Positions 7,743-38,841 of a DNA stretch of 64,000 nucleotides are shown here, in pieces. Position numbers and translations under genes: made by a program. Under the pieces are notes generated by a model. It did no database searches. It worked only from the letters and a program-made list of their open reading frames with translations, and was not told where the DNA came from. Where the stretch lies: positions 62,001-126,000 of IMG/VR virus record IMGVR_UViG_3300047157_000105; one strand, 5' to 3'. Position 1 is the first letter of the stretch, and each line of letters begins with the position of its first letter. This DNA comes from a virus.

Positions 7743-8786
7743 ATGGATAAATTAGCGAAGAACTCTCGTATCAAAGAGTCTTCCCAACTTGACAAAAGCA
7801 AGTTGTTTAGTAATAAGGACATGGTGACTACACCTGTTCCAATGATTAACGTTGCACTATCAGGTGATCCAGACGGAGGTCTGAGTTCTGGTTTAACAGT
7901 ATTAGCTGGACCATCGAAGCATTTTAAGACTTCTTTTGGCTTGTTAATGGCAGCAGCTTACTTAGATAAGTATGAAGACGCTGTACTGTTGTTTTATGAT
8001 TCAGAGTTTGGTAGCCCGCAACAATATTTTAAGTCGTTCGGTATTGATACTTCCCGCGTACTACATAGTCCCATTACTAATGTAGAAGAGCTGAAGTTTG
8101 ACCTAATTTCTCAGCTCGAGAATATCGAACGCGACGACAAAGTCATTATTATGATTGACTCTGTCGGTAACCTAGCTTCAAAGAAAGAGCTAGAAGATGC
8201 TATGAATGAAAAGTCAGTAGCAGATATGTCGAGAGCAAAAGCTCTCAAAGGTCTATTTAGAATGACAACACCCTACCTAACAATGAGAGATATTCCATTG
8301 ATAGCAATAAACCATACATATCAAGAAATAGGCTTATTTCCGAAGGCGGTCGTATCAGGTGGTACAGGTATTTACTACTCCTCAGATAATATCTGGATCA
8401 TTGGCCGCCAGCAGGAAAAGAAGGGAACAGAAATTACAGGATATAACTTTGTCATTAATGTAGAGAAATCAAGGTTTGTCCGTGAGAAGTCTAAGATTCC
8501 TATTAATGTTACATGGGAAGGTGGTATCGAATCGTATTCAGGTTTATTAGATGTAGCAATAGAAGGTGGATATGTAGTTAAACCATCTAATGGTTGGTAC
8601 TCAAAGGTTGACCGATCTACTGGAGAAGTAGAAGATAAAAAGGTTCGTATTGCACAAACACTTGAAGCAGAGTTTTGGCAAGACATTTTTGCAAAGTCAG
8701 ACTTTAAAGATTATCTTAAAAACAAATATGAAGTTGGTCATGCTGAAATGATTAAACAAGATAACCCTGAGGACTTGGATATTTAA
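7743..8786 (+). CDS. uvsX: UvsX RecA-like recombinase
   Basis: 347 residues. Walker A AGPSKHFKTSF (residues ~55-65) has the T4 UvsX form, and Walker B lies in VIIMIDSVG. The RecA-family core continues through PLIAINHTY (L2 region). It forms filaments on gp32-coated ssDNA and drives strand exchange in recombination-dependent replication. It overlaps gene 41 by one base (TAATG), keeping recombinase and helicase in one unit. An ATG a few codons in cannot be excluded, but the annotated one fits family length. Confidence 0.93.
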   Translation: MDKLAKNSRIKESSQLDKSKLFSNKDMVTTPVPMINVALSGDPDGGLSSGLTVLAGPSKHFKTSFGLLMAAAYLDKYEDAVLLFYDSEFGSPQQYFKSFGIDTSRVLHSPITNVEELKFDLISQLENIERDDKVIIMIDSVGNLASKKELEDAMNEKSVADMSRAKALKGLFRMTTPYLTMRDIPLIAINHTYQEIGLFPKAVVSGGTGIYYSSDNIWIIGRQQEKKGTEITGYNFVINVEKSRFVREKSKIPINVTWEGGIESYSGLLDVAIEGGYVVKPSNGWYSKVDRSTGEVEDKKVRIAQTLEAEFWQDIFAKSDFKDYLKNKYEVGHAEMIKQDNPEDLDI

Positions 8787-10147
8787 TGCAGATCGAAACA
8801 TTAATCTTACGCAACTTAATGCTTAATGAGGATTATACCAGAACGGTTATTCCTCATTTAAAAACTATATACTTTGAAGATCCATATAGATCGGTATTTA
8901 ACGAGATTGTTGGATTTGTCAATAAGTTTAATAAGCTACCAAGTTCTGATGCACTCAGTATAGAACTAAGGAATAATCCTAAGATCACATCAGATTCTCT
9001 TGCACTTATACCTGAATTGAGTAAACAAGAAACAGAACAAACTCAGGAATGGTTAATCGAAAAGACAGAGAAGTGGTGTCAAGACCGAGCAATCTATTTA
9101 GCAATCATGGATTCAATTAATATTATTGAAGGTAAGCATGATACATTAGATAAGAATGCATTGCCATCTGTATTGAGTGAAGCATTAGGTGTTAACTTTG
9201 ATATGAGGGTTGGTCACGATTATGTTGATGACTCTGATGGACGTTTTGATTTCTATCACAGGCAAGAAGAACACCTACCATTTGACTTAGAAAAGTTTAA
9301 CACAATCACCAAAGGTGGTCTCGTCAAGAAATCTCTTAATGTTGCTTTGGCTGGTACAGGTGTAGGTAAGTCTTTATTTATGTGTCATGTTGCCGCTGGT
9401 GCTTTAACACAGATGAAAAATGTGTTATATATAACTATGGAAATGGCAGAAGAAAGAATAGCTGAACGTATTGATGCTAACCTTATGAATGTGCCTATTG
9501 ACCAGTTAGAGAATCTAAGTAAGGATATGTTTGATAAGAAGATGCATAAGCTTACTGACAAAGGTGTTGGTAAACTTATTGTAAAAGAATATCCTACAGG
9601 AGCTGCAAGTTCTATACACTTTAGAGCATTGCTAAAAGAATTACAGATCAAACGTGACTTCACTCCTGATCTTATTTGTATAGACTATCTAAATATATGT
9701 GCCTCATCAAGAATGAAATCTATGGGTGGTGCAATCAATTCATATATTATGGTGAAAGCAATTGCAGAAGAATTGCGTGGTTTGGCAGTAGAGTATAACT
9801 TACCTATTGTCACGGCCACACAAACAACTCGTTCAGGTTTTGCATCATCTGATGTAGGACTAGAAGATACAAGTGAATCATTTGGTTTACCGGCTACGGC
9901 AGATCTTATGTTTGCACTTATATCTACTGAAGAACTTGAAGCTATGAATCAAATCATGGTAAAACAATTAAAGAATAGGTATAATGATCCTACAGGTGGA
10001 AACAAGAAGTTTGTACTTGGTATTGACAGGGCTAAGATGAGACTGTATGATGTAGAGGATACGGCCCAAACTCTAAATGTAAGAGATGAGCCAGTTAAAG
10101 TTGCACCTAGATATGACACAATAGGGGAGGGATTTACAATTGAGTAG
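8786..10147 (+). CDS. 41: gp41 replicative DNA helicase (DnaB family)
   Basis: 453 residues, near the usual length of T4 gp41. Walker A AGTGVGKSLF at residues ~189-198, Walker B LICIDYLNI, and a C-terminal DnaB-type region ending in the NRYNDPTGGNKKFVLGID arginine-rich strand. The N-terminal ~150 residues form the primase/loader interaction domain. It unwinds the lagging-strand template as a hexamer and would work with the gp59-like loader encoded at 31,399. Its end overlaps the deaminase start by 8 bp. Confidence 0.93.
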   Translation: MQIETLILRNLMLNEDYTRTVIPHLKTIYFEDPYRSVFNEIVGFVNKFNKLPSSDALSIELRNNPKITSDSLALIPELSKQETEQTQEWLIEKTEKWCQDRAIYLAIMDSINIIEGKHDTLDKNALPSVLSEALGVNFDMRVGHDYVDDSDGRFDFYHRQEEHLPFDLEKFNTITKGGLVKKSLNVALAGTGVGKSLFMCHVAAGALTQMKNVLYITMEMAEERIAERIDANLMNVPIDQLENLSKDMFDKKMHKLTDKGVGKLIVKEYPTGAASSIHFRALLKELQIKRDFTPDLICIDYLNICASSRMKSMGGAINSYIMVKAIAEELRGLAVEYNLPIVTATQTTRSGFASSDVGLEDTSESFGLPATADLMFALISTEELEAMNQIMVKQLKNRYNDPTGGNKKFVLGIDRAKMRLYDVEDTAQTLNVRDEPVKVAPRYDTIGEGFTIE

Positions 10148-12286: not shown

Positions 12287-12294
12287 TATAAATA
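12287..12294 (+). promoter_or_regulatory. T4-type late promoter TATAAATA
   Basis: Exact TATAAATA, 30 bp before the first gene of the putative packaged-protein block. This is the T4 late consensus read by gp55 sigma with the gp33 coactivator; a gp33-like gene is present at 31,172. Confidence 0.75.
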
Positions 12295-12324: not shown

Positions 12325-13011
12325 ATGCAGTCACTCAAAGGTTATCTATCAGAAGGAAGACACGATCCTTCAATATTCAAAGCGGTTTTTATGGCAGGTG
12401 CTCCAGGCGCAGGTAAATCCTTTGTCGCTGAATCTATGGCACTACCCGCCCAATTAGGATATAAAGAAATTAACTCTGATATAGAGTTTACTCGCTATAT
12501 GAAAGATGCAGGATTAGCTGATGAAAATGGTGCAGTTATCCTTGATCCTAAACAAGAATATGAACGTAACGTAATACGTACTGTAGCAAAGAGACATACT
12601 AAAGCCAAACAAGGTCACGCCATGGTAGGTAGATTAGGTCTACTTATTGATGGTACAGGTGCAAATTCTTCTAAAGTATTAACACAAAAGCAAACACTAG
12701 AAGCGCTTGGTTATGAGACATCTATGATATATGTCAAGCTTGGTTTAGAAGGTTCTATTGAATCTGACAGACAGCGGGGTGAAGCAGGTGGAAGATCTAT
12801 CGGACCAGAACTTGTAACCGCCAAATACAATGAATTAGAGAAGAGTTTAAAACCATTGAAGAGATCATTTGGTAAAATGTTTTTCGAGATAGATAATTCA
12901 GTGAGGGAAAAAACACCAGCCCTAATTCGTAAAGTAGAGAATCAAATTAAAAAATGGTCTAAACAATTGCCTAAAAATAAAGCTGCGAAAACATGGATGA
13001 AAAATAACTGA
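12325..13011 (+). CDS. zeta-toxin-like P-loop kinase, putative capsid-packaged protein, 228 aa
   Basis: Begins MQSLKGYLSE|GRHD: a short leader ending LSE before Gly, the gp21 protease cleavage rule, like T4 internal proteins (MKTYQEFIAE|A). Then Walker A AGAPGAGKSF (residues 24-33), INSD (residues 49-52) and LIDGTGANSS. This is the zeta-toxin/small-molecule kinase branch of P-loop enzymes, which phosphorylate sugars, nucleotides or polynucleotide ends. It is the first gene after a late promoter. Packaging is inferred from the leader and context; the substrate is unknown. Confidence 0.7.
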   Translation: MQSLKGYLSEGRHDPSIFKAVFMAGAPGAGKSFVAESMALPAQLGYKEINSDIEFTRYMKDAGLADENGAVILDPKQEYERNVIRTVAKRHTKAKQGHAMVGRLGLLIDGTGANSSKVLTQKQTLEALGYETSMIYVKLGLEGSIESDRQRGEAGGRSIGPELVTAKYNELEKSLKPLKRSFGKMFFEIDNSVREKTPALIRKVENQIKKWSKQLPKNKAAKTWMKNN

Positions 13012-13250
13012 TGAAGACGTTAAAACAAATTAAAGAAGGACCAGGCAGTAAGAGTGAACCATGGGAAAAAGGTTATAAAAGAAGAGTTGTAAAGACCACA
13101 AAGCCTGAGCATACGGAGATGGGGTATAAGTGGAGAATTAAAGGTAAAGATCGTGATGAGATCTCTATTAAACTATATAAGTCTAAACCAGATTTTGCTG
13201 AGTTTAAAAAGCAAATGAGAAGAGTAGCAGGACACGAATTCGGCGGATAA
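13011..13250 (+). CDS. small basic putative packaged protein, 79 aa
   Basis: MKTLKQIKE|GPGS gives the leader plus IKE-Gly cleavage pattern. The mature part is basic (KGYKRRVVKTTKP, KKQMRRVAG). The basic character and leader match T4 internal (IP) proteins that enter the host with DNA. Function unknown. Confidence 0.65.
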   Translation: MKTLKQIKEGPGSKSEPWEKGYKRRVVKTTKPEHTEMGYKWRIKGKDRDEISIKLYKSKPDFAEFKKQMRRVAGHEFGG

Positions 13251-13251
13251 T

Positions 13252-13584
13252 ATGAAAACATTAAAACAAATAGAAGCAATCGATTGTACATGCGAAGAGA
13301 TGTACAAAGAATTAGTAGTTGAAAAGTATGAAGGCAAAACACTAAATGAGCCTATACGTTCACCACAAGGAAGTAAACACAAGTTCCATGTATATGTAAA
13401 GAATGATAAAGGTAATGTTGTAAAGGTTACATTCGGTGATCCTAATTCAGAAATTAAAAGAGATGATCCTGCAAGACGTAAAGCATTTCGTGCACGTCAT
13501 AATTGTGATCAGAAAAAAGATAAAACTAAAGCAGGATATTGGTCATGTTACCAATGGAGAGCTGGTGCAAAGGTAGATAGTTAA
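13252..13584 (+). CDS. conserved phage protein with Cys/His cluster, 110 aa
   Basis: Starts with the same MKTLKQI leader as the preceding gene but lacks a clean cleavage site (EAIDC). The C-terminal ~70 residues are a recurrent phage module: KHKFHVYVKNDKGNVVKVTFGD, ARRKAFRARHNCDQKKDKTKA, GYWSCYQWR. The conserved RHNC and YWSC could bind metal. I know the module from many large phage genomes but not its function. Confidence 0.65.
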   Translation: MKTLKQIEAIDCTCEEMYKELVVEKYEGKTLNEPIRSPQGSKHKFHVYVKNDKGNVVKVTFGDPNSEIKRDDPARRKAFRARHNCDQKKDKTKAGYWSCYQWRAGAKVDS

Positions 13585-14969
13585 TGCTTTCATTTAAAAC
13601 AAAACAACTAGAAGAAAAAGCTCCTCCCGGTATGAAAGCCCTAGTAAAGGGATTTAAAGCCGATGGTATGGATGACGACAAAGCTTTTGCTATTGCTTGG
13701 TCTATATACAATAAGAAGAAAACTGAAGAGAAAACTCCGGCAAAACCACAAGATGATGATTCAGGTTGGGTAGAAGAGTATATTACAGAAGGTACAACAA
13801 CTGCATCTACTTTATTTGAACTTGTTATTATTGCCTGTATCAATGCTCCAACAAACCGTAAACGCTTTGATGCTTATATGGCGCGTGATAGAGGATATCA
13901 AGGGTGGTTGGCTGCAGCGAATAAAGATAAAAAATGGAATACTGACCCTGACCAATTATTTAAATTTGCTACATTATTAAAAAGATCTACGCGAGGTAAA
14001 TCAGCAACTTCTGCTGGTCAAACTTCTCCAGCAACTTCAACAATGTGGAAAGAAGTTACTGGTAAAGGTTCGGATACTTCTAAAGCTGATGTTAACATTG
14101 ATAAGCATCGAGTATCGGTTAAAGGTCCCGCAGCAAGATTAATGTCTGGTGTAAAAGAAGAAAGCTTAGCCACATTATATGCAGCATTTGATACTTTAGG
14201 TGTAGATGATCTCGGATTAGAATTAGAAAAAATAGTAAATAATTTTGTATCACAGGTAAAAACAGTGGGCGCAGATATGAATACGAAGACTATTAAAGAG
14301 CAAGATCCTAAAACGCTATCGGCTGAAAATAGAAAAGCATTTAAGGATTTAGAAAAACAAGTACAAGTTAAAGTACAAGCTGAAACAGCATTTAAAAAAG
14401 CATTTAACAATAAACAATTTGCTGATGCATTTGCTTGGGAAGCTATGAGCGGCGAAAAGAAATTTGATCGTAAAGAAGGATTTTCTGATGCAATGTTAGT
14501 GTGGAATTATGATTTAAGCGGAGTTGTATGGCATCCTAATTTAAGTTTAAATAATAAGTATACTAAAAAAGTTTCAGGTCAAATGAAGTTTTCTGCTAAT
14601 GTTAAATCAGGTTCATATAAAAAAGCCGGTACTAAGTATGGATATTCCATATCACAAACTGTTGGATTAGCTATGAAAACAGCCGAAGACGAATTTGAAG
14701 TAGCTAAGAATGAAAGTATAGAACAAAGAATGAATTTAGAAAATATGTTAACAGAAGGTAGAATAAATGAAGCAAAATTATTAGATATGCTTAAAGGTGT
14801 TTGGGAAAGATTAAAAAATGCTATAAGAACTGCTTGGACAAAATTACTTAATGTTATTTCTAACTTAGTACAACAAATAAAAGATGCTGTTGATGGCGGT
14901 ATAGATAAAATGTTAAACGCATTTGAATTAGAACCAATAATTAGATTTAACGATAATATAAAACTATGA
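13584..14969 (+). CDS. putative packaged/virion protein with internal gp21-type sites, 461 aa
   Basis: N-terminus MLSFKTKQLEEKAPPGM and a FAIAWSIYNKKK helix-loop common in T4-like marine phage structural proteins. Further in are YITE|GTTT, MLTE|GRIN and RINE|AKLL, all fitting the (L/I)xE-(G/A) protease rule. The centre (residues ~80-370) is mixed alpha/beta and unrecognised. The C-terminal ~60 residues are amphipathic helices (LDMLKGVWERLKNAI). A virion component cut during head maturation is the best reading. Confidence 0.55.
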   Translation: MLSFKTKQLEEKAPPGMKALVKGFKADGMDDDKAFAIAWSIYNKKKTEEKTPAKPQDDDSGWVEEYITEGTTTASTLFELVIIACINAPTNRKRFDAYMARDRGYQGWLAAANKDKKWNTDPDQLFKFATLLKRSTRGKSATSAGQTSPATSTMWKEVTGKGSDTSKADVNIDKHRVSVKGPAARLMSGVKEESLATLYAAFDTLGVDDLGLELEKIVNNFVSQVKTVGADMNTKTIKEQDPKTLSAENRKAFKDLEKQVQVKVQAETAFKKAFNNKQFADAFAWEAMSGEKKFDRKEGFSDAMLVWNYDLSGVVWHPNLSLNNKYTKKVSGQMKFSANVKSGSYKKAGTKYGYSISQTVGLAMKTAEDEFEVAKNESIEQRMNLENMLTEGRINEAKLLDMLKGVWERLKNAIRTAWTKLLNVISNLVQQIKDAVDGGIDKMLNAFELEPIIRFNDNIKL

Positions 14970-16195
14970 ATTTAAAGACACACATAGCAGAAGCAAAGAA
15001 TACTCACATGACCCATATCGAGGATATGGTAATTGATGGTGGAGTAGACGGAGCAAGATCAGCTATCTTTGCATTAAGAGATTTAAGAGATATGTTGGCT
15101 GGTCATTCGAATGATACCAAAGCAGTTACAGTCAAATGGGATGGAGCTCCTGCAGTATTTGCTGGTATCGATCCATCTGATGGTAAGTTTTTTGTTGCAA
15201 AGAAAGGAATATTCAATAAGAATCCTAAGGTGTATAAATCAGTAAAGGATGTGAAAGCTGATACCTCTGGTGATCTAGCAAAGAAACTAACAGTAGCATT
15301 TCAAGAATTAAGTAAACTTGGTATAAAGAAAGGAGTCTACCAAGGTGACATTATGTTCACAAAACCAGACTTAAAGAAAACAACAATTGATGGGAAGAAG
15401 TATGTAACCTTCCACCCAAATACTATAGTATATGCAGTACCCGTTGAAGCAGCGCAAGAGATTATGAGAGCAAAGATTGGTGTAGTGTGGCATACTTATT
15501 ACTCAGGCTCAACCTTTGAAACGATGAATGCAAGCTTTGGTGTGACCACTGCAGCGTTTAAAAATGTCCGAACGGTATGGCAGAAGTCCGCCAACCTACC
15601 AGATGTTTCTGGTTTAGCCACATTAACCAAAAAGGATACTGATGAAATTACGAAACACATCTCGAATGCAGGAAAGCTCTTTCAAAAAATCGCTGCCACG
15701 ACGCTTAATGACGTGGCTACAAATAAAGATATTAACCTCTTTATTAATACCTTTCGAAATACGAAGGTTAGATCGCAAGATGAAGTCACGGACTCCGCGG
15801 CCTATGTTGAAGAGCTTATCGCATGGATATCAAATCGTTACGACACCGAAAAAGAAAGGCTTAAAAGCGATGCTGGGAAGGATAGGAAGGAAGAAGCGAA
15901 GCTGGCAGCCTTAGAATTCTTCTCAGATGATAACAGAGATAGCCTTATAAGTATGCTTGATATGCAAAATGAACTAGTAAACGCTAAGATTAAGCTATTA
16001 AAACATCTGGACAGTATGGATAGTATAAATACATTTGTAAAGACTAAAGACGGATTTAGAGTAACAGGCGCCGAAGGATATGTTGCTATAGATCATTTAA
16101 CAAACGGTGCAGTTAAAATTGTAGATAGGATGGAATTTTCCTATAATAACTTTAGCAAAGACATAATCAAGGGATGGGAGTCCGAATCACGATGA
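14966..16195 (+). CDS. ligase-like covalent nucleotidyltransferase, putative packaged protein, 409 aa
   Basis: Leader MNLKTHIAE|AKN fits the packaged-protein cleavage rule. VTVKWDGAPAV contains KxDG (Lys57-Gly60), the adenylation motif I of DNA/RNA ligases. GDIMFTKPD may be motif III/IIIa, TGAEGYVAI motif IV (EGxV), and AVKIVDRM motif V. The family (I believe DUF6267 in marine T4-like phages) has unproven activity, most simply an RNA or DNA ligase. It overlaps neighbours by 4 bp at both ends. If injected with DNA, it could repair nucleic acids at the start of infection. Confidence 0.6.
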   Translation: MNLKTHIAEAKNTHMTHIEDMVIDGGVDGARSAIFALRDLRDMLAGHSNDTKAVTVKWDGAPAVFAGIDPSDGKFFVAKKGIFNKNPKVYKSVKDVKADTSGDLAKKLTVAFQELSKLGIKKGVYQGDIMFTKPDLKKTTIDGKKYVTFHPNTIVYAVPVEAAQEIMRAKIGVVWHTYYSGSTFETMNASFGVTTAAFKNVRTVWQKSANLPDVSGLATLTKKDTDEITKHISNAGKLFQKIAATTLNDVATNKDINLFINTFRNTKVRSQDEVTDSAAYVEELIAWISNRYDTEKERLKSDAGKDRKEEAKLAALEFFSDDNRDSLISMLDMQNELVNAKIKLLKHLDSMDSINTFVKTKDGFRVTGAEGYVAIDHLTNGAVKIVDRMEFSYNNFSKDIIKGWESESR

Positions 16196-16737
16196 AATTA
16201 ATAGACAGATTAGTAAAATCATATACACGTATAGATGAAGCAAGAGTAAAAGATAATCATAGGTGGAATGCCAATGATGAATTAGCTACTATGAATTTCA
16301 TTTATAAAGACTTTAAAAAAGAATTAGGTAGAGATCCAGGTAAACCATACATGGATGATGACGCATTAGTAGTAGGCGATGAGACTGTACTTAATGTTAA
16401 CGACAATACATCAGTCGCTGATATGAAAAAAGCGGTACAAAGCTGGGTTGCAAAAAATGCTAAGCCCGCTGCTGATGAAACTAAAATGGGTAAATTCAAT
16501 GTTAAGTTACCTACTGAATTAGCCGGAGTACTTGGTAATAAAGCATCTAAACTTGAAAATCCACGTGCAATTATTAAAACAGATGCTGGCTCTGCTAAAG
16601 AGATCCAATCAGCTGTTAAAGGCAAAGGTGTAAAGTTTCGTATGATGAAACGTAAAGATCATGTTGCTGTATACCTTGACTTTGATGATGGTAAACTAAT
16701 GCAAGATGCATTAAAGAAAGTAGCAAAGATCAAGTAA
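16192..16737 (+). CDS. putative packaged protein, 181 aa
   Basis: I take the ATG at 16192 (ATGA overlap with the preceding stop, GGAG upstream) instead of one 18 bp earlier. It gives MKLIDRLVKSYTRIDE|AR, an IDE-Ala cleavage leader. The rest is basic with a C-terminal strand-rich part (VKFRMMKRKDHVAVYLDFDDG). No family recognised. Confidence 0.6.
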   Translation: MKLIDRLVKSYTRIDEARVKDNHRWNANDELATMNFIYKDFKKELGRDPGKPYMDDDALVVGDETVLNVNDNTSVADMKKAVQSWVAKNAKPAADETKMGKFNVKLPTELAGVLGNKASKLENPRAIIKTDAGSAKEIQSAVKGKGVKFRMMKRKDHVAVYLDFDDGKLMQDALKKVAKIK

Positions 16738-17561
16738 TGTCACTGCATAGCTTTAAAGAACACTATCTTGAGGAGGCTGCAGCCGAAACTGTAACCTTAA
16801 ATTGGGGACGATTTAATCCTCCAACTATTGGTCATGAAAAACTTTTAGATATATCTATGTCTAAAGGATCTGGTGTACACAGAGTATATGCAACCCAATC
16901 ACAAGATAACAAAAAGAATCCTCTTGAATGGAAAACTAAAATTAAGTATATGCGTAAGGTATTTCCTAAGCATGCAAGACATATACTTATGGATAAGAGA
17001 GCAAAAACAATATTCGATGTTCTGACTATAGCACATGATGACGGCTTTAAGAATGTAGAGTTGTTTGTTGGTCAAGATCGATTAACAGAATTCGAAACAT
17101 TAGTTAACAAATATAATGGTGTAAAGGGTAGGCATGGTTTCTATGACTTTGCATCCATTAAAATACTTAGTGCTGGTGATCGTGATCCAGATGCAGAAGG
17201 CGCAGAAGGTATGTCAGCCTCAAAAATGAGAGCTGCAGCTGCTGAAAATGATCTTATATCATTTACTAAAGGTCTACCACCAAGGTATAGAGATGCCGAA
17301 GCACTTATGACTGATGTGCGTAAAGGCATGGGTTTAAAAGAAGAGAAATCTTTTAGACAAGATGTAAAATTAAAGAAGGCTTCAAATCTTCGTGAGAAGT
17401 TTGTGGCTGGTAAATTATTTAACGTGAAAGATCCTGTGAAAACAAATGATGGCCAAGAAGGTATTATAGATACACTAGGAGCTAATCATGTTAAAGTAAA
17501 GTTGAAAGGAGACGGAAACTTTAAAACTTTCTGGCTTCAAGATATATGTTTAAATAATTAG
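16737..17561 (+). CDS. NMN adenylyltransferase-like nucleotidyltransferase, putative packaged protein, 274 aa
   Basis: Leader MSLHSFKEHYLEE|AAAE, then TVTLNWGRFNPPTIGHEKL (residues 18-36) with the GRFNPxTxGH signature of HIGH-type nucleotidyltransferases such as NadM/NadR, and GMSASKMRAAA matching the second (ISSTxxR-like) motif. The fold transfers AMP to nicotinamide mononucleotide or related acceptors. An extra ~70-residue C-terminal part (FNVKDPVKTNDGQEGIIDTL) looks like a small SH3-type barrel. Inferred to enter the host with the DNA and alter NAD metabolism; the acceptor could differ. Confidence 0.7.
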   Translation: MSLHSFKEHYLEEAAAETVTLNWGRFNPPTIGHEKLLDISMSKGSGVHRVYATQSQDNKKNPLEWKTKIKYMRKVFPKHARHILMDKRAKTIFDVLTIAHDDGFKNVELFVGQDRLTEFETLVNKYNGVKGRHGFYDFASIKILSAGDRDPDAEGAEGMSASKMRAAAAENDLISFTKGLPPRYRDAEALMTDVRKGMGLKEEKSFRQDVKLKKASNLREKFVAGKLFNVKDPVKTNDGQEGIIDTLGANHVKVKLKGDGNFKTFWLQDICLNN

Positions 17562-17572
17562 GAGAATATATT

Positions 17573-17896
17573 ATGTCAAATATGGCAGGTGTAACAAAAG
17601 ATATGTACCCCGAAGGAACTGTAGCAGACTTAGACGGTTTCAAAGGACCACATGGTGAAGTATTACTAGGTGTTGAATTTACTCAAGAAGAAGTAGATTC
17701 ATGGAATGGTACAAGCTCGGACTTACCAGCGACTGGCGCTTCGGCTACCAGTAGCGCTAGTCCAGAAGTATCTAAGGTAACAGCAAAATCCACAAAAGAA
17801 GAGATGGAGATAGCGGGCCGTGAAATAGGTATTGAGCTAGATAGACGTAAGTCTAAAAAGACTCTATGGAGTCAATTAAAGAAGGCAATGAAGTAA
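17573..17896 (+). CDS. unknown protein, 107 aa
   Basis: Three parts: an N-terminal acidic section (DMYPEGTVADLDGFKG), a Ser/Thr/Ala linker (SDLPATGASATSSASPE) and a C-terminal basic helix pair (STKEEMEIAGREIGIELDRRKSKK). The linker and late-gene setting suggest a virion component. Ribosome-binding site AGGAGAATAT. No family identified. Confidence 0.6.
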   Translation: MSNMAGVTKDMYPEGTVADLDGFKGPHGEVLLGVEFTQEEVDSWNGTSSDLPATGASATSSASPEVSKVTAKSTKEEMEIAGREIGIELDRRKSKKTLWSQLKKAMK

Positions 17897-17916
17897 AACC
17901 CTAATAAATATATATT

Positions 17917-18273
17917 ATGGAATTGACTAAGAATAACTTCGAGTTATATGCTGCGAAGCATTATCAAAAAGATAAGTGGTCCACCGACGATGATTTTAAA
18001 GAAGATATCTCTCGGTTTAAGTATATTAACAGATTAGTCAATAGGTATTATCGTGATGATGAATTAAAAGAACGATTAATACTAAACCATATTATTGTTT
18101 TAGGTAATGTGTTAGGACCATCAATCTGTGCAGAGATACTAATGCACAAAACTCATCCGGTCTTACAAAGTATTATTAAAACCTTCTTGGTATATTTAAA
18201 CTATTTGCCAGAAGAAGAGTATGTTGAGATTCCATTAGACTCAACTGTTATAGACGTATTAAGGAAGTTATGA
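17917..18273 (+). CDS. conserved T4-like marine phage protein, 118 aa
   Basis: All-helical protein with FKYINRLVNRYYRDDELKER and LILNHIIVLGNVLG, then IIKTFLVYLNYLPEEEY. This layout is common in T4-like cyanophage and pelagiphage genomes next to the gene that follows here. Function unknown. It overlaps the next start by 4 bp (ATGA). Confidence 0.6.
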   Translation: MELTKNNFELYAAKHYQKDKWSTDDDFKEDISRFKYINRLVNRYYRDDELKERLILNHIIVLGNVLGPSICAEILMHKTHPVLQSIIKTFLVYLNYLPEEEYVEIPLDSTVIDVLRKL

Positions 18274-18800
18274 GTAGATATTTAAAAGAAGGTGCAGTAG
18301 ACTTATTCATGACGTATAAGTTTATTCGCTTGCTTACAACTAAGTGGAATAAAACTGAAGCATTTAAAACTGGTGTCATTGACGACAAGGGTAAGCTATT
18401 AGTTAAAGGTAAAGATCAGACAGAGAAACAAAAGAAATCTTATCAGTTATTCGACAAATTAGTTTTTAATTTAAAAAGAATCTTAGAGAAAGTACCGTTC
18501 GGAAAATCTCAGATTGCTTCTTATGCTGCAGCATTATTTCTACTTAAAGAAAATACTGATATGGCAGAAGAAGATATCCTCAAGGTGCTTGAGGATTTAG
18601 GTCACGATACTTCAATTGATTTAAACGAAGAGTTTAAAGAACTTCATGAGGGCCAATACATACTAAATCATGATCTGCAAGAAAGCAGTAAAGGGACAAT
18701 TGTGAATTTAGATAATATAGAACCAGTTGGGCAATTCGCTGGTGTTCCTATATATAAAACACAAGAAAAAATTTTTATATCTGTAAACAATATATTATAA
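18270..18800 (+). CDS. conserved virion-type protein, 176 aa
   Basis: Begins MSRYLKE|GAVDLFMTYKFIRLL; LKE-Gly also fits the gp21 site, although the leader is only seven residues. Continues FKTGVIDDKGKLLVKG and a helical FDKLVFNLKRILEKVP region, a pattern I associate with structural genes of T4-like marine phages. The C-terminal ~60 residues contain an EPVGQFAGVPIYKT strand motif. It ends the late block before nrdA. Confidence 0.6.
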   Translation: MSRYLKEGAVDLFMTYKFIRLLTTKWNKTEAFKTGVIDDKGKLLVKGKDQTEKQKKSYQLFDKLVFNLKRILEKVPFGKSQIASYAAALFLLKENTDMAEEDILKVLEDLGHDTSIDLNEEFKELHEGQYILNHDLQESSKGTIVNLDNIEPVGQFAGVPIYKTQEKIFISVNNIL

Positions 18801-21707: not shown

Positions 21708-21721
21708 TAACATTCATTCAA

Positions 21722-21960
21722 TAATGAAGTGAGCTAGATAACGACGTAAAGGTAAAAGTAGGAGCACTTAACACGCGGGTTCAAATCCCGCCTCCTCCAC
21801 CAAATAGATCTAAAATAGATTTATTTAATGGGGGAGATTCGGCATCGATTAGGTAGCAGAGCCGCTTGAGACTCGTCAGTCAACGAAGACTTTAAAATGA
21901 AAAATTAATCGGCAATCAGTCAGATTATTTACTAGCCGCCTAATGGCTAGTTGAGGTTTT
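21722..21960 (+). ncRNA. ssrA: circularly permuted (two-piece) tmRNA
   Basis: Acceptor piece first: T-arm GCGGGTTCAAATCCCGC and CTCCTCC-ACCA ending at 21802. After a 27-base spacer comes the coding piece, starting GGGGGAG at 21830. CTCCTCC (21792-21798) pairs fully with GGGGGAG (21830-21836), with G-U as third pair, the alanine identity element of tmRNA. The tag frame 21911-21943 reads GNQSDYLLAA-stop, the same length as E. coli ANDENYALAA and sharing N2, Y6 and L8-A9-A10, with TTAATC just before the resume codon. The stop codon lies in the loop of hairpin ACTAGCC/GGCTAGT. The 5' edge of the acceptor piece is approximate. Confidence 0.9.
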
Positions 21961-21962
21961 CT

Positions 21963-22006
21963 TCCGGAGTTCCTTATCACCCAATACTCCGGATCTTCTT
22001 TTTTAT
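21963..22006 (+). terminator. intrinsic terminator after tmRNA
   Basis: Stem TCCGGAGT (21963-21970) / ACTCCGGA (21986-21993) with a 15-base loop, followed by a T-rich run to 22005. Confidence 0.7.
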
Positions 22007-22016
22007 ACATACACAT

Positions 22017-22328
22017 ATGATAACCTTAACAGACAACGCCGCTGATAAATTAAAGACTCTGGTTACTGGTAGTAAACAGTTAAGAGTATTAGTTAAAGGT
22101 ACAGGCTGTTCTGGTATGGCATATCATTTAGAGTATAACATAATGCAAACAGATATGGATGACTTGTTTATTGTAAAAGATATTCCTATCGTAATTGATA
22201 AAAAATCACAAGTTTATGTTGAAGGTGCTGAGATAGACCATAAGACAAAAGGATTAAATGAAGGCTTTGAGTTTTCTAATCCTAAGGAAAAAGCAAGGTG
22301 TGGATGTGGTGAATCCTTCACTATGTGA
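22017..22328 (+). CDS. A-type iron-sulfur carrier (IscA/HesB family), 103 aa
   Basis: The start at 22017 gives MITLTDNAADKLKTLV, the usual family N-terminus; an upstream extension would run into the terminator. Conserved cysteines: GTGCSGMAY and the C-terminal ARCGCGESF (CxC). Such proteins carry Fe-S clusters to target apoproteins. A phage copy could support host or phage Fe-S enzymes during infection. It sits between the tmRNA and another promoter. Acquisition from a host is likely but not shown by sequence alone. Confidence 0.88.
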   Translation: MITLTDNAADKLKTLVTGSKQLRVLVKGTGCSGMAYHLEYNIMQTDMDDLFIVKDIPIVIDKKSQVYVEGAEIDHKTKGLNEGFEFSNPKEKARCGCGESFTM

Positions 22329-25022: not shown

Positions 25023-25880
25023 ATGGTACTAGTAGATTTTAATGGTTTGGCAATCGGGTCCATCATGGGTCAATTATCACGTGGTGAGGAGCTTAGCGAA
25101 AACTTAGTTAAGCATATTATTATTAATAACCTAAGGATATATCGTAACAAATATAAAGAGGCAGACTACGGTAAGATGGTTATCGCATGTGATAGTTACT
25201 CTTGGCGTAAAGATGTATTCCCAGAGTATAAGGCTGCACGTAAAGCTAATCGTGAATCAGATAAACATGATTGGCCAATGATCTTCGACTTAATAGAAGA
25301 TACTCTAAATGATTTACGTGAGAACTTTCCATACGCTGTTATTAAGATCGATAGTGCAGAGGCTGATGATATTATTGGTGCATTGACTGTACACAAGTCC
25401 ACACCTCTTATTGGTGAGGATGTAGTTATTATATCTGCTGACAAAGACTTTATTCAATTACAGCAATACGGTCATGTCATACAATGGTCACCTATGTTTA
25501 ATAAAATGATTAAAGAAGATAATCCACGTAGATATTTGTTCGAACATTTACTCAAGGGCGATGCGGGTGATGGTGTTCCTAATGCCAATTCTCATGATAA
25601 TGTATTTACTACAGGTTCAAGACAAACACCTATGACACAAAAAGCTATAGAGAAATATTGGGATAATCGTGATGATCTAGAAATGATTATGAAGCCTAAT
25701 GTCTTCCGTAACTTTATGCGTAATGTACAAATGATTGACTTGACTAATACTCCAGATGGTATTCGTGAAGCAGCTATAAATACATACGAGAATTACAAAT
25801 ATCCACCACGTTCTAATATACTAACATACTTAATAGAACACCGTATGAAAATGTTAATTGACAATGCAGCAGAGTTTTGA
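25023..25880 (+). CDS. rnh: T4-type RNase H (5'-3' exonuclease, FEN family)
   Basis: 285 residues. Acidic clusters of the FEN fold: VLVDFNGL, ACDSYSWRKDVFPEYKAARK (metal plus helical arch), SAEADDIIGAL, ISADKDFIQLQ and KGDAGDGVPN. It removes RNA primers and flaps on the lagging strand and in T4 works with gp32. It is followed immediately by a coupled small gene (TTGA overlap). Confidence 0.9.
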   Translation: MVLVDFNGLAIGSIMGQLSRGEELSENLVKHIIINNLRIYRNKYKEADYGKMVIACDSYSWRKDVFPEYKAARKANRESDKHDWPMIFDLIEDTLNDLRENFPYAVIKIDSAEADDIIGALTVHKSTPLIGEDVVIISADKDFIQLQQYGHVIQWSPMFNKMIKEDNPRRYLFEHLLKGDAGDGVPNANSHDNVFTTGSRQTPMTQKAIEKYWDNRDDLEMIMKPNVFRNFMRNVQMIDLTNTPDGIREAAINTYENYKYPPRSNILTYLIEHRMKMLIDNAAEF

Positions 25881-26020
25881 GCGAAGACGAACTAAGACAA
25901 TTCATGGAGTATTTCAAAGATGAACTACCTGATCCAGAGCATTATCCGATAAAGGTAATGTGGTTATATAGGTGGTGGAAAAGTATTACATTAAGGAATA
26001 GAGAAGATGCCGACGTATGA
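25877..26020 (+). CDS. small protein with TTG start, 47 aa
   Basis: TTG overlaps the rnh stop (TTGA); an internal ATG at 25904 is an alternative giving 38 residues. The sequence LRQFMEYFKDELPDPEHYP followed by a Trp-rich helix resembles small proteins seen beside rnh in T4-like marine phages. It ends inside the next gene. Function unknown. Confidence 0.5.
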   Translation: MSEDELRQFMEYFKDELPDPEHYPIKVMWLYRWWKSITLRNREDADV

Positions 26021-26252
26021 TTTTAAAAGTAATAAGACTGGTAAAGAGTGGGAAGACACAATGTCTTACAAAGATCTAGATGCTTATTACAAAAAACATG
26101 ACTGCCAACAAGTAATCAATAAACAACCTCAAGTAGTCTCAGGTGTTAAATCTTTATGGTCACAAACAGATGACGGATTTAAAGATCGCATGAGTGAGAT
26201 TCAAAAGGTGGCAGGTAAACAAGGAATGAAACAAACTGACTACGATAGATAA
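26007..26252 (+). CDS. conserved small phage protein, 81 aa
   Basis: MPTYDFKSNKTGKEWEDTMSYKDLDAYYKKH resembles FmdB-type zinc ribbons in layout but lacks the CxxC pairs; only one Cys is present (HDCQQ). A short C-terminal SVKSLWSQ-like linker and helix follow. It is common in T4-like phages; function unknown. TAATG overlap with the exonuclease gene. Confidence 0.6.
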   Translation: MPTYDFKSNKTGKEWEDTMSYKDLDAYYKKHDCQQVINKQPQVVSGVKSLWSQTDDGFKDRMSEIQKVAGKQGMKQTDYDR

Positions 26253-26899
26253 TGTTTAAACATGAACCCATTGATTTAGGTTATAATGACCTAACTACTA
26301 CAAACAAAGGTGGTAGAAAATATCAAACACCGAATGGTGATTACCCTTCTATAACAACTGTACTTGGTAACCTAAGTAAGAAAGCTATTATGGAATGGAG
26401 AGATCGTGTAGGTCATGATGTAGCAAATCAAATATCTAGACAAGCTGCCGGTAGAGGTACAGCAGTTCACCAAGTCTGTGAAGATTATGTGAACAATAAA
26501 CCTGATTATGACAAAGACTTGATGCCTAATATCTTGCATGACTTCAAGAGAATTAAAAATATACTAGACACAAGAATAGGCACAGTATATGGACAGGAGT
26601 TACCATTGTATTCTGATCACTTAGGAGTTGCAGGTCGAGTTGACTGTGTTGCAGAGTTTGATGGTAAACCGTCTATTATAGACTATAAGACAAGTAGAAA
26701 GACAAAGAAAAAGGAATGGATCCATTCTTATTTCATGCAAGAATGCTTTTATGCTATTGCATGGGAAGAGAGAACTGGTATTCCTATCACACAATTAGTA
26801 ACAATTATCTCTGTGGATGACGCAGAACCGCAAGTATTCATTGAACATCGTGACAACTGGGATAAGGAACTCGTGCAGGTCATACACCAGTATACTTAA
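26252..26899 (+). CDS. PD-(D/E)XK (RecB/Cas4-like) exonuclease, 215 aa
   Basis: YPSITTVLG, then GRGTAVHQVCEDYV (RecB-type GxxxxHxxxE), GVAGRVDCVAEFDG (Asp) and SIIDYKTS (D-x-K), then QECFYAIAW (QxxxY). All RecB-family nuclease motifs are present, so an active ssDNA or dsDNA exonuclease is expected. Its role may be recombination or host DNA breakdown. It follows rnh in the same unit. Confidence 0.85.
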   Translation: MFKHEPIDLGYNDLTTTNKGGRKYQTPNGDYPSITTVLGNLSKKAIMEWRDRVGHDVANQISRQAAGRGTAVHQVCEDYVNNKPDYDKDLMPNILHDFKRIKNILDTRIGTVYGQELPLYSDHLGVAGRVDCVAEFDGKPSIIDYKTSRKTKKKEWIHSYFMQECFYAIAWEERTGIPITQLVTIISVDDAEPQVFIEHRDNWDKELVQVIHQYT

Positions 26900-26937
26900 A
26901 CTGGCACACCAACTCGCCGCATCTGGACCAGTAAATA

Positions 26938-26970
26938 GTTACACAAGCACTCGTTTTTATGATATAATAT
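26938..26970 (+). promoter_or_regulatory. GTTACACAAGC-class promoter
   Basis: GTTACACAAGC at 26938-26948 at the place normally held by TATGTAC, with TGA-TATAAT at 26960-26968. The same 11-mer recurs at 27257. Confidence 0.6.
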
Positions 26971-26997
26971 AACTATATTAAACAATAAGGACAGACA

Positions 26998-27228
26998 ATG
27001 AAAGTAGGAAATAGATTAAAACCAGGTAACAGAAATCAAAGAATACAAGACAGACACGCACGTCTTGTTGCTCAAGTTAATCAACTTCAAGATGACAATG
27101 CTCGTCTTCAAAAACAAGTTGATTCTAACAAAGCAGCTTTTGATTGGGCAAGATGTCAAGCTCATATCAATAGGCTTATTGCAGATCGTAATCAGCTTAG
27201 AGCACAACTTGCTGCTCTTACTTCATAA
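26998..27228 (+). CDS. coiled-coil protein, 76 aa
   Basis: A basic N-terminus (KVGNRLKPGNRNQRIQDRHAR) leads into heptads rich in Gln/Leu/Val (VAQVNQLQDDNARLQKQVD, INRLIADRNQLRAQLAAL), a clear coiled coil. It has its own promoter and AAGGACAGACA site. It may oligomerise and bind nucleic acid; no family assigned. Confidence 0.6.
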   Translation: MKVGNRLKPGNRNQRIQDRHARLVAQVNQLQDDNARLQKQVDSNKAAFDWARCQAHINRLIADRNQLRAQLAALTS

Positions 27229-27256
27229 ATAAGCACACTATTTCTGTGACTATAAA

Positions 27257-27289
27257 GTTACACAAGCGATCAAAACTGTGATATAATAT
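27257..27289 (+). promoter_or_regulatory. GTTACACAAGC-class promoter
   Basis: GTTACACAAGC at 27257-27267 and TGA-TATAAT at 27279-27287; same spacing as the copy at 26938. Confidence 0.6.
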
Positions 27290-27317
27290 TACTATATTAA
27301 ATAAAAAAGGAATTAAA

Positions 27318-27578
27318 ATGGATATAATGAAAATACTTGAAAAATACGAATCACCTGAGAACGAAGCTTCTTTTTACAAAGGCATTCCAATAAAATACCT
27401 TAAAGATGTTCAAAAATCTTTATTGTTTTGGGATAGCTTAGATGGTGTAAAAACTTTTAGATATCAGTTTAGAGGTAAGTCTAAACCTGGTTTTAAAAGA
27501 CCACAAGCATGGTGCCCTAAAGCTCATGCAGAAACATTTGCTGTTTACGAAAAAGGAGTTAACACATGGCTAGTATAA
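27318..27578 (+). CDS. unknown protein, 86 aa
   Basis: ATG follows AAAAAAGGAATTAAA. KYLKDVQKSLLFWDSLDGV then a basic aromatic segment (FRYQFRGKSKPGFKRPQAW). No family recognised. It overlaps the next start by 13 bp. Confidence 0.6.
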   Translation: MDIMKILEKYESPENEASFYKGIPIKYLKDVQKSLLFWDSLDGVKTFRYQFRGKSKPGFKRPQAWCPKAHAETFAVYEKGVNTWLV

Positions 27579-27739
27579 AAAGATCAAAAGAAGTGCAAGA
27601 CTTTATTGATGCTAACCCTGATAAGTTCAGGGTTGTATCACCTGAGGAGACTGCCAAGACTTTGCAAAAGCAAAGTGGCGGTTATTTCAAAGGTCAATCA
27701 GTGATGGGTCCATCTAAAAAGAAAGGCAAATCATCGTGA
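27566..27739 (+). CDS. small basic protein, 57 aa
   Basis: AAAAAGGAG precedes the ATG by 9 bp. Product MASIKRSKEVQDFIDANPDK and a Lys-rich end (GPSKKKGKSS). It fills the gap to the next coupled gene. Unknown. Confidence 0.55.
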   Translation: MASIKRSKEVQDFIDANPDKFRVVSPEETAKTLQKQSGGYFKGQSVMGPSKKKGKSS

Positions 27740-27798
27740 AGAATTTCATTATTATAATGTTAGTTATTATCAATTTTATTATTTGGAGTCAAGTATAA
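27736..27798 (+). CDS. possible 20-residue membrane peptide
   Basis: GTG start overlapping the upstream TGA (GTGA) and TAATG overlap downstream. KNFIIIMLVIINFIIW is a complete membrane segment. The coupling on both sides supports it, but it is very short. Confidence 0.35.
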   Translation: MKNFIIIMLVIINFIIWSQV

Positions 27799-37608: not shown

Positions 37609-38841
37609 ATGGCTTTAAGCAATTTTTTTAATGGCGCTGGTACAGTATCACCGGCATTTTCTAGGAAACTAGATGGTGCAATGGATCCATCACACGTTTT
37701 TAAACATAATCAATTTAGAAGAACAAGAACTAAACCATTTGATTTAAAATATCCTCATACTGTTGGAGATGCTCCTTCAAGCTTATCAGTAGATTATAAT
37801 ACTAATTTATCAAGTGAATTTGCAACAACAAGAGCTTCTGAAGGTATAGACAAGGAAGCAATTGAACCATTTGTCTTTTTTGAATTTATGGAAATAATAC
37901 CTAAATTAAAAGAAGAGAAAAATGAAAGGCGAAGACAGTATAAACAAGCATTAAAGCCTGGTATATTAGAAGGTAAAAAAGCCGCAGAAGTACCAGGAGC
38001 ACTTGCTAGTGCACTTAAAAATAATATAGAATATTCACTAGTTGGAAATATAAATGATATAGAAGAAAATGAAGAGGCGATTGCTAAAAGCGGAGAAGTA
38101 ATAACTAAAGGAATAACCGAAGCAAAAGAAAGCGGATTACTTAAACCGGCATTAAGACAATATAAAGGTTCTATAGCAATGTATATGCCTACTGATATTC
38201 AAATAAATGATTCTATAGCATATAATGAAAACACTCGAAAAACATTTGGAGTTATACAAGGCTTAGCCGAAGGCGATGTGGATGCTGAAAACGTAGGTGT
38301 AAAACTGGCCGCACAGGCAGGAACAATTGGACTTGGTAGATTTTTAGGATACCTAGGTGGAAAAATGAGTATTGGTGGTGATTCAGCCTCTAATTTAGGT
38401 ACTTTATTAGGTGCTGCTGGTGTTGGTACTGTAATGGATGAATATCAAAGATCTACTGGTAAGGCATCTAATCCTCATGATTATATGGCATATCAAAATA
38501 CTGCTTTAAGAAGTTTTACATATACATTTACATTTTTACCAGATAGCAAAGAAGAATCAGTAGATGTGGCAGAGATCATTAAACAATTTAGACATGCTGC
38601 TCACGCTGAGAGACTTGATGCTGTTGCATTAACTGTACCAGAACATGTTATTATATCGCATCACGGAGCAGGAGATATGATTCAGTTACCTCCTGTAGTA
38701 ATTGAATCTGTTAATGTAGCTTATAACCCTAATAATTCTTCATTCTTTATAGAAGGTGGACATCCGGTTGAAGTTGGATTAAGTGTAACATTTAAAGAAA
38801 TTGTTCCGCTTTATAAACAAGATGTTGAAGGAGGTATGTAA
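37609..38841 (+). CDS. 48: gp48-like baseplate tail-tube cap protein, 410 aa
   Basis: The C-terminal ~130 residues have the tube-fold pattern: ALRSFTYTFTFLPDSKEESV, IIKQFRHAAHAE, QLPPVVIESVNVAYNPNNSSFF and VGLSVTFKEIVPL. The N-terminal part is polar with a charged helical insert (EEKNERRRQYKQALK) and a Gly-rich middle (GTIGLGRFLGYLGGKM). T4 gp48 and gp54 cap the tail tube on the baseplate. First gene after the rightward late promoter and TAATG-coupled to gene 53. Confidence 0.65.
   Translation: MALSNFFNGAGTVSPAFSRKLDGAMDPSHVFKHNQFRRTRTKPFDLKYPHTVGDAPSSLSVDYNTNLSSEFATTRASEGIDKEAIEPFVFFEFMEIIPKLKEEKNERRRQYKQALKPGILEGKKAAEVPGALASALKNNIEYSLVGNINDIEENEEAIAKSGEVITKGITEAKESGLLKPALRQYKGSIAMYMPTDIQINDSIAYNENTRKTFGVIQGLAEGDVDAENVGVKLAAQAGTIGLGRFLGYLGGKMSIGGDSASNLGTLLGAAGVGTVMDEYQRSTGKASNPHDYMAYQNTALRSFTYTFTFLPDSKEESVDVAEIIKQFRHAAHAERLDAVALTVPEHVIISHHGAGDMIQLPPVVIESVNVAYNPNNSSFFIEGGHPVEVGLSVTFKEIVPLYKQDVEGGM

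What the first reader, a model, noticed from the sequence alone, without database searches (positions are those of the whole stretch)
12325..18800. Block of enzymes with gp21-cleavable leaders: likely injected with the genome
Behind a TATAAATA promoter, most products start with a short leader ending in the prohead protease rule (L/I)xE before G/A: MQSLKGYLSE-G, MKTLKQIKE-G, MNLKTHIAE-A, KSYTRIDE-A, EHYLEE-A, MSRYLKE-G. This matches the T4 capsid-targeting leader (MKTYQEFIAE-A). Payloads include a zeta-like kinase, a KxDG ligase-like enzyme and an NMN-adenylyltransferase-like enzyme, so this phage may deliver nucleic-acid repair and NAD-related enzymes at time zero.
Basis: partly seen in the sequence, partly recalled or inferred. 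Interest (0 to 1): 0.82.

Follow-up and report, generated by a model that had tools for sequence, protein, structure and literature searches.

The report
Phage enzymes tagged for capsid loading
A marine T4-like phage carries a block of enzymes (a zeta-like kinase, an RNA-ligase-like enzyme, a nucleotidyltransferase and others), each with a short removable N-terminal tag of the kind that sends T4 proteins into the virus head, so they are probably injected with the DNA; in related phages the tagged enzymes are the ones found in purified virus particles.

Summary
The block is real. Five of the six quoted leaders are conserved; MSRYLKE-G is not, so the block runs 12325-17561. The phage encodes gp20, gp21 (S77 protease), gp22 and gp23 outside the window. 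Across ~160 related loci the leaders vary freely but keep the residues that define the T4 capsid-targeting sequence: an aromatic or leucine at 4, Y/F/H at 7, I/L/V at 8, E at 10. Payload families are sometimes fused; the cleavage motif then stays at the internal junction (22 of 28 junctions, 2.1 expected). The best support comes from published virion proteomes of relatives. In S-CREM2, 7 of 192 scanned ORFs carry the leader pattern; five are mass-spectrometry-confirmed virion proteins, including the SAM hydrolase, the kinase and the cytidylyltransferase. The virion-detected cytidylyl/NMNAT-like enzymes of S-SM1, S-SZBM1 and S-SCSM1 also carry it. Papers reporting these enzymes left packaging versus contamination open. 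DUF6267 is most likely an RNA-ligase-like nucleotidyltransferase. Best reading: T4-type capsid targeting and gp21 cleavage of an enzyme cargo that is then injected. Packaging is well supported by relatives; cleavage and injection in this phage are inferred; substrates are unknown. New variant of a known kind.

The parts
12287..12294 (+). TATAAATA, T4 late-promoter-like octamer, 30 bp before the first gene of the block
   Evidence: 20 in window vs 11.3 expected, so only suggestive
12325..13011 (+). zeta-toxin/polynucleotide-kinase-like P-loop kinase (GAPGAGKS), 228 aa; leader MQSLKGYLSE, cut predicted between nt 12354/12355
   Evidence: Pfam Zeta_toxin 8e-13; leader site in 29/39 distinct relatives; site kept at the internal junction in 8/8 fused homologues
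13011..13250 (+). 79-aa protein of unknown function; leader MKTLKQIKE, cut predicted between nt 13037/13038
   Evidence: 7/8 distinct relatives keep a site; fused copies keep a site at the junction in 4/5
13252..13584 (+). 110-aa protein, phrog_7595; N-terminus MKTLKQIEA lacks a canonical site; conserved cut predicted at LVVE-K (residue 24, nt 13323/13324)
13584..14969 (+). 461-aa multi-part protein: leader MLSFKTKQLEE, second site YITE-G (residue 69), conserved core with (P)KTD...S(L/V)K (weak nuclease hint), sites near residues 391/396, C-terminal helical segment
   Evidence: alignments A2, A4; model pLDDT 60; coordinates
14966..16195 (+). DUF6267, RNA-ligase-like covalent nucleotidyltransferase (KWDG 57-60, EGYV 370-373, K384), 409 aa; leader MNLKTHIAE, cut predicted between nt 14992/14993
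   Evidence: Pfam DUF6267 2e-98, domain begins at residue 12; model pLDDT 84 with residues 1-14 disordered; best structural matches are RNA ligases
16192..16737 (+). 181-aa protein of unknown function; leader MKLIDRLVKSYTRIDE, cut predicted between nt 16239/16240
   Evidence: 9/9 distinct relatives keep a leader site; a relative with an inserted domain has a site at both ends
16737..17561 (+). cytidylyltransferase/NMNAT-like nucleotidyltransferase (GRFNPPTIGH, SASKMR), 274 aa; leader MSLHSFKEHYLEE, cut predicted between nt 16775/16776
   Evidence: PHROG 395, 1.4e-63; leader in 35/43 distinct relatives; leader-bearing relatives found in virions of four cyanophages

Best explanation
The genes at 12325-17561 encode cargo proteins of the phage head. 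Each is made with a short N-terminal tag equivalent to the T4 capsid-targeting sequence. The tag brings the protein into the prohead core during assembly; the phage's gp21 protease then cuts after (L/I/V)xE, removing the tag (and separating fused domains where present); DNA is packaged around the freed enzymes, and they leave with the DNA at infection. The cargo includes a P-loop kinase, an RNA-ligase-like enzyme, a nucleotidyltransferase and small proteins, most plausibly used for immediate repair or modification of nucleic acids or nucleotides in the newly infected cell. Shown here: conserved leaders with the T4 CTS residues, gp21 and core genes in the same genome, sites kept at fusion junctions, and co-occurrence of leader and virion presence in relatives. 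Inferred: cleavage and packaging in this phage, injection, and all enzyme substrates.
For: gp21 S77 protease at record position 38519 (E 1e-42), with Portal_T4, Gp23 and gp22-like scaffold genes. Block enriched for N-terminal sites, 6/10 vs 9/188, P 1e-5. Forty distinct 10-residue leaders: position 4 F/L/Y/I in all (F in 34), position 7 Y/F/H in 35, position 8 I/L/V/M in all, E at 10; positions 4 and 7 were not used in the selection and stand at 0.30 and 0.13 in controls. These are the positions assigned to targeting (4, 7) and processing (8, 10) in T4 (PMC9026906). Close DUF6267 orthologues vary at the x of (I)xE but not at I, E or the following A. Fusions: a site within 2 residues of the homologous boundary in 22/28 vs 2.1 expected; without the kinase family 14/20, P 2e-12. 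S-CREM2: pattern in 7/192 ORFs, 5 of them MS-detected (5/25 non-core virion proteins vs 2/151 undetected, P 7e-4): SAM hydrolase MKDFDSFLEE, kinase MKRFDAFLTE, gp13 MKDLHSFLTE, gp136 MQTFSMFFSE, cytidylyltransferase MKNFSSFLTE. Virion-detected relatives of the window nucleotidyltransferase also carry it in S-SM1 MKKFSAFLNE, S-SZBM1 MRFRQFIIE and S-SCSM1 MKSFLQFLKE. In S-SZBM1 the neighbouring leaderless DUF6267 protein is not in the virion table.
Against: No proteome exists for this phage. Many cyanophage DUF6267 orthologues have no leader, so packaging is not essential to that enzyme everywhere. Several S-SCSM1 virion proteins of the syntenic block lack a CTS-like start, so leaders are not the only route. 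Three window leaders (w13011, w13252, w13584) fit the T4 spacing poorly; a tight pattern matches only two block genes. Virion enzymes in CsCl-purified stocks could be contaminants, as the original authors say, although contamination would not explain the leader bias. In the kinase family the E-G could partly be a residue of the domain itself.
Confidence: 0.87

Rival explanations
1. The leaders are true capsid-targeting tags, but the proteins act inside the prohead (core filling, scaffold or DNA packaging) and are not injected as working enzymes.
For: T4 IPIII has a head-assembly role (PMC9026906). Injection was not tested here.
Against: Intact catalytic motifs of three enzyme families would be unnecessary for a structural filler. 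T4 Alt and internal proteins are ejected.
Confidence: 0.2
2. The enzymes are ordinary cytoplasmic early or middle enzymes, and the (L/I)xE-A/G starts are chance or reflect an acidic N-terminal helix.
For: Cyanophage DUF6267 orthologues lack the leader. Loose sites occur at many other N-termini.
Against: Enrichment in the block, T4-like residues at 4 and 7 that were not selected for, sites kept at internal fusion junctions and the link between leader and virion presence in S-CREM2.
Confidence: 0.05
3. The leaders are cut by, or addressed to, something other than the gp21/core system, for example a host protease or another compartment.
For: No direct cleavage data in this lineage.
Against: The same motif occurs in this phage's gp22 and gp23, gp21 is present, and the leader positions match T4 CTS determinants.
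Confidence: 0.04

Closest known systems
T4 internal proteins IPI/IPII/IPIII and Alt with the capsid-targeting sequence
   Same: Short N-terminal propeptide, aromatic/hydrophobic residues at 4 and 7, (I/L)xE cut by gp21, many unrelated payloads with one kind of leader.
   Different: The T4 cargoes are small basic proteins and one ADP-ribosyltransferase. Here the cargo is a kinase, a ligase-like enzyme, a nucleotidyltransferase and others, encoded as one block near the DnaB-like helicase gene, with fused multi-domain versions in relatives.
Virion-associated enzymes of cyanophages (S-CREM2, S-SCSM1, S-SZBM1, S-SM1)
   Same: Cytidylyl/NMNAT-like enzyme in the virion; authors suggest it may enter the host (PMC10665884, PMC9602691, PMC9146016, PMC3037559).
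   Different: The S-CREM2 and S-SCSM1 papers leave packaging versus contamination open, and the main-text passages read here do not mention a leader or mechanism. The leader offers both and extends the idea to the window's kinase, ligase-like and nuclease-like proteins.
Agrobacterium phage Atu_ph07 gp053-gp063
   Same: Eleven tandem genes, each starting with a short leader such as M(K/R)WxQLxE; gp053 holds a relative of the window kinase behind an internal VTE-G site. They lie inside CDS 31-76, where 29 virion proteins were detected (PMC6102473).
   Different: A jumbo phage; most of these genes belong to a paralogous family with a YRGM motif that looks ADP-ribosyltransferase-like by eye only (no Pfam match). 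Which individual proteins were detected is in a supplement I could not read.
Polyvalent proteins (Iyer et al. 2017, PMC5512222)
   Same: Multi-domain effector proteins transferred with the invading DNA.
   Different: Here each enzyme mostly has its own gene and its own removable leader, and where domains are fused, protease sites lie between them.
T4 RNA ligase 2 and Naegleria RNA ligase
   Same: DUF6267 has KxDG, EGxV and a downstream lysine, and its model aligns best with RNA ligases (Z 7.2 and 8.5).
   Different: About 10-13% identity, a helical insertion (residues ~222-350), and no demonstrated ligase activity.

Membership tests
T4-type CTS-bearing internal head proteins | N-terminal propeptide of about 10 residues ending in (L/I)xE before a small residue | tested here: met
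   weaker for w13252 and w13584
T4-type CTS-bearing internal head proteins | Hydrophobic/aromatic residues at positions 4 and 7 (targeting) and I/L at 8, E at 10 (processing) | tested here: met
   Met across 40 distinct leaders (criterion from PMC9026906). In the window, exact for MQSLKGYLSE and, one residue shorter, for MNLKTHIAE; other leaders deviate in spacing
T4-type CTS-bearing internal head proteins | Phage encodes a gp21-type prohead protease and a gp22 core protein | tested here: met
T4-type CTS-bearing internal head proteins | Protein present in the mature virion | tested here: inconclusive
   No data for this phage; leader-bearing relatives are in virions of S-CREM2, S-SM1, S-SZBM1 and S-SCSM1
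T4-type CTS-bearing internal head proteins | Leader removed after the glutamate in the virion | not testable with these tools
   Needs N-terminal peptides
T4-type CTS-bearing internal head proteins | Ejected into the host with the DNA | not testable with these tools
   Needs an infection experiment
T4-type CTS-bearing internal head proteins | Late expression | tested here: inconclusive
   One TATAAATA 30 bp before the block; the octamer is only mildly enriched
ATP-dependent RNA/DNA ligase superfamily (DUF6267 protein) | Motif I KxDG, motif IV EGxV, motif V lysine | tested here: met
   K57, D59, G60, E370, G371, V373, K384 invariant in 22 sequences
ATP-dependent RNA/DNA ligase superfamily (DUF6267 protein) | Nucleotidyltransferase fold | tested here: inconclusive
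   Nearly all of the best 50 VIA-align rows are ligases, top Z 8.5, rmsd 3.7, 188 aligned, but Foldseek alone gave no significant match
Zeta toxin / polynucleotide kinase | P-loop kinase domain | tested here: met
   Zeta_toxin 48.7 bits over cut-off 22.3, AAA_33 over cut-off
Zeta toxin / polynucleotide kinase | Substrate (UDP-sugar or nucleic-acid 5' end) | not testable with these tools
   PHROG polynucleotide kinase match is weak (2.5e-6)
NMN adenylyltransferase | NMNAT substrate specificity | tested here: inconclusive
   CTP_transf_like below cut-off (19.4 vs 21), NMNAT PHROG 0.0012, cytidyltransferase PHROG 1.4e-63
PD-(D/E)XK nuclease (w13584 core) | Nuclease fold and catalytic triad | tested here: inconclusive
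   (P)KTD...S(L/V)K motif conserved but the model is weak and no fold match was found

The most novel reading that the evidence does not exclude
The T4 capsid-targeting leader is a general address-and-release code used by T4-superfamily phages, from marine Kyanoviridae to jumbo phages, to inject modular arsenals of enzymes made as single proteins or cleavable polyproteins. In this phage the arsenal would be an RNA-end repair kit (kinase plus RNA ligase) with a nucleotide/NAD enzyme, present before any phage gene is expressed, to pre-empt RNA-cutting or NAD-depleting host defences.
Probability: 0.35. Interest if true: 0.87.

Novelty: new variant of a known kind. Interest (0 to 1): 0.72.

Why it matters
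Several groups have found enzymes (cytidylyl/NMNAT-like transferases, kinases, a SAM hydrolase, even a Cas9) in cyanophage virions and could not say whether they were packaged or contaminants. A ten-residue leader that can be read from sequence offers an answer, predicts the cargo of very abundant uncultured marine phages, and suggests that nucleic-acid repair and nucleotide enzymes act from the first moment of infection. It also gives a simple test: look for peptides that begin right after the predicted cut, including in already published mass-spectrometry data.

Tried and rejected
MSRYLKE-G (w18270) as a leader: rejected, 4 of 15 relatives. w17573 and w17917 as cargo: no leader in relatives. 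Sequence-only search for solved relatives of DUF6267, the nucleotidyltransferase and the kinase: nothing useful. Foldseek alone for DUF6267: no significant match. Nuclease assignment for w13584: only a motif; model pLDDT 60 and no fold match. DNA-level relatives of the block in named phages: none beyond the ribonucleotide reductase gene. Leader sites at C-terminal nucleotidyltransferase fusions (S-PM2 type, DLP6, S-SM1 second domain): not kept (0-1 of 4). Supplementary tables with individual Atu_ph07 and S-SM1 proteins could not be read; the S-SM1 claim rests on the paper's main text. Literature searches for an earlier description of these leaders in cyanophages or of DUF6267 in virions found none in the held library.

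Full report
What is there. The window is positions 62001-126000 of a 140,543-bp virus record of a T4-like myovirus. The flagged block lies downstream of a DnaB-like helicase gene (8786-10147). Of its ten genes, seven belong to families with a capsid-type leader or site: a zeta-like kinase (12325), a 79-aa protein (13011), a 110-aa protein (13252), a 461-aa protein (13584), DUF6267 (14966), a 181-aa protein (start better at 16192) and a cytidylyl/NMNAT-like nucleotidyltransferase (16737). The last three genes (17573, 17917, 18270) do not have conserved leaders, so MSRYLKE-G is a chance match.

The protease and the core exist. Outside the window the record encodes a T4-type portal (Portal_T4, 6e-169), an S77 prohead protease (2e-41), a gp22-like scaffold (4e-50) and gp23 (6e-127) in T4 order. 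gp22 and gp23 carry the same (L/I/V)xE motif at several points. Three further leader-like genes lie next to structural genes at record positions 25032-27749 (MKTLKQIRE-A, MKSFKMFE-S, MKSFKAFE-N); one of them is a DUF5824 protein, a domain that PHROG 3041 shows fused to the nucleotidyltransferase.

More than chance. In the block 6 of 10 genes have an N-terminal site before A/G/S; in the rest of the record 9 of 188 do (P 1e-5), and two of those nine are the extra leader genes just named. From about 160 IMG/VR loci I collected distinct N-termini for each family. Leaders change a great deal between relatives, yet in 40 distinct 10-residue leaders position 4 is always F, L, Y or I, position 7 is Y, F or H in 35, position 8 is I, L, V or M, and position 10 is E. 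Only positions 8 and 10 were used to select them. In T4, residues 4 and 7 direct targeting and residues 8 and 10 processing (PMC9026906). Among close DUF6267 orthologues the residue that is free in the rule (x of IxE) varies while I, E and the next A do not. The Pfam DUF6267 domain begins at residue 12, just after the leader, and the first 14 residues of the predicted structure are disordered.

Fusions. In several relatives the payloads are joined to each other or to other domains. If the site were only an N-terminal accident it should vanish inside a fusion. It does not: in eight fused kinase proteins the boundary reads TLDE-G, WLNE-G, SVEE-G, LLTE-G, GIDE-G, QVDE-G, ELTE-G and EVTE-G. Over all families 22 of 28 junctions keep a site within two residues, against 2.1 expected from the same proteins; without the kinase family it is 14 of 20 (P 2e-12). 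The C-terminal nucleotidyltransferase fusions are the exception. Such fused proteins would be cut into separate enzymes inside the prohead.

The strongest evidence comes from published proteomes of relatives. In S-CREM2 (PMC10665884, Table 3) the authors detected 52 virion proteins, including a SAM hydrolase, an APH-like kinase, a cytidylyltransferase and a Cas9, and could not exclude contamination. I scanned 192 of its ORFs (from the stretches fetched; about 20 at the end of the genome, two very long ones and a few tiny ones were left out) with the leader pattern. The pattern was the one used earlier on S-SM1 with one letter added that none of the hits uses. It matches seven ORFs, five of them virion-detected: the SAM hydrolase, the kinase, the cytidylyltransferase, gp13 and gp136; 5 of 25 non-core virion proteins against 2 of 151 undetected ORFs (P 7e-4). 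The Cas9 carries RFASFMAE-A at residues 18-25. In S-SM1 the virion-detected citidylyltransferase (PMC3037559) begins MKKFSAFLNE-A, and apart from it only short or unannotated reading frames match the pattern in that genome. The virion-detected enzymes of S-SZBM1 (MRFRQFIIE-A) and S-SCSM1 (MKSFLQFLKE-A) fit as well. In S-SZBM1 the adjacent leaderless DUF6267 protein is absent from the virion table. Leaders are not the only route: other S-SCSM1 virion proteins lack them. In jumbo phage Atu_ph07 eleven tandem genes (gp053-gp063) have leaders and lie in a cluster rich in detected virion proteins.

What the cargo may do. DUF6267 keeps the nucleotidyltransferase motifs KWDG, EGYV and a downstream lysine. 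Its model (pLDDT 84) matches RNA ligases best: Naegleria RNA ligase Z 8.5, fungal Trl1 7.8, T4 RNA ligase 2 7.2, then DNA ligases. Z near 8 is not decisive alone, but nearly all of the 50 listed rows are ligases. With a kinase related to zeta toxins and polynucleotide kinases, an RNA-end repair role is plausible; T4 makes such a pair after infection to undo host RNA cutting (own knowledge). The nucleotidyltransferase has the family motifs but an unknown substrate, so NAD synthesis is one option. The 461-aa protein has a nuclease-like motif only.

Mechanism and confidence. I conclude that these are capsid-targeted, gp21-processed cargo proteins (0.87). Injection is inferred from T4 Alt and internal proteins. 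Enzyme roles are hypotheses. The idea of capsid-targeting leaders is known from T4, and virion enzymes are known from cyanophages; the link between the two, the enzyme set, the cleavable fusions and the predictive value of the leader appear new within the papers I could search.

Noticed in passing
window 21710-22034: A permuted (two-piece) tmRNA gene, tag GNQSDYLLAA (ARAGORN; Rfam tmRNA_permuted 68.5 bits), just before an iron-sulphur biosynthesis gene at 22017. Phage tmRNAs are described for Melnitz-like phages (PMC9004378).
   Followed up: partly
G000:18678-22448 (outside the window; L185): A curli cluster: CsgF, a CsgG reading frame split in two overlapping frames, a FecR-like gene, and a 369-aa secreted protein rich in curlin-like repeats by eye (no Pfam match). 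Pelagimyophages are said to lack CsgA/CsgB (PMC7029224), so this protein deserves a look.
   Followed up: partly
L179:7704-13331 (S-CREM2 gp12-gp15): A virion-detected phage Cas9 (gp12) with an internal capsid-targeting-like motif RFASFMAE-A, beside three other virion-detected proteins with leader-like starts (gp13, gp14, gp15): possibly an injected Cas9.
   Followed up: no
L174:24485-35593 (Atu_ph07 gp053-gp063): Eleven tandem genes with short leaders such as M(K/R)WxQLxE; most share a YRGM motif, possibly ADP-ribosyltransferase-like; gp066 starts MNTVTLLE-KLDGS, a KxDG ligase-like start.
   Followed up: partly
G000:25032-27749: Three more leader-like genes beside structural genes: a 660-aa protein with repeated internal sites, a DUF5824 protein with a second site VYE-A before its domain, and a 97-aa protein.
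   Followed up: partly
L009:12994-13506 and L010:14296-14886: In Melnitz and HTVC008M the same neighbourhood holds a HAD-type phosphatase with a leader-like start, which could supply a 3'-phosphatase partner for the kinase and ligase.
   Followed up: no
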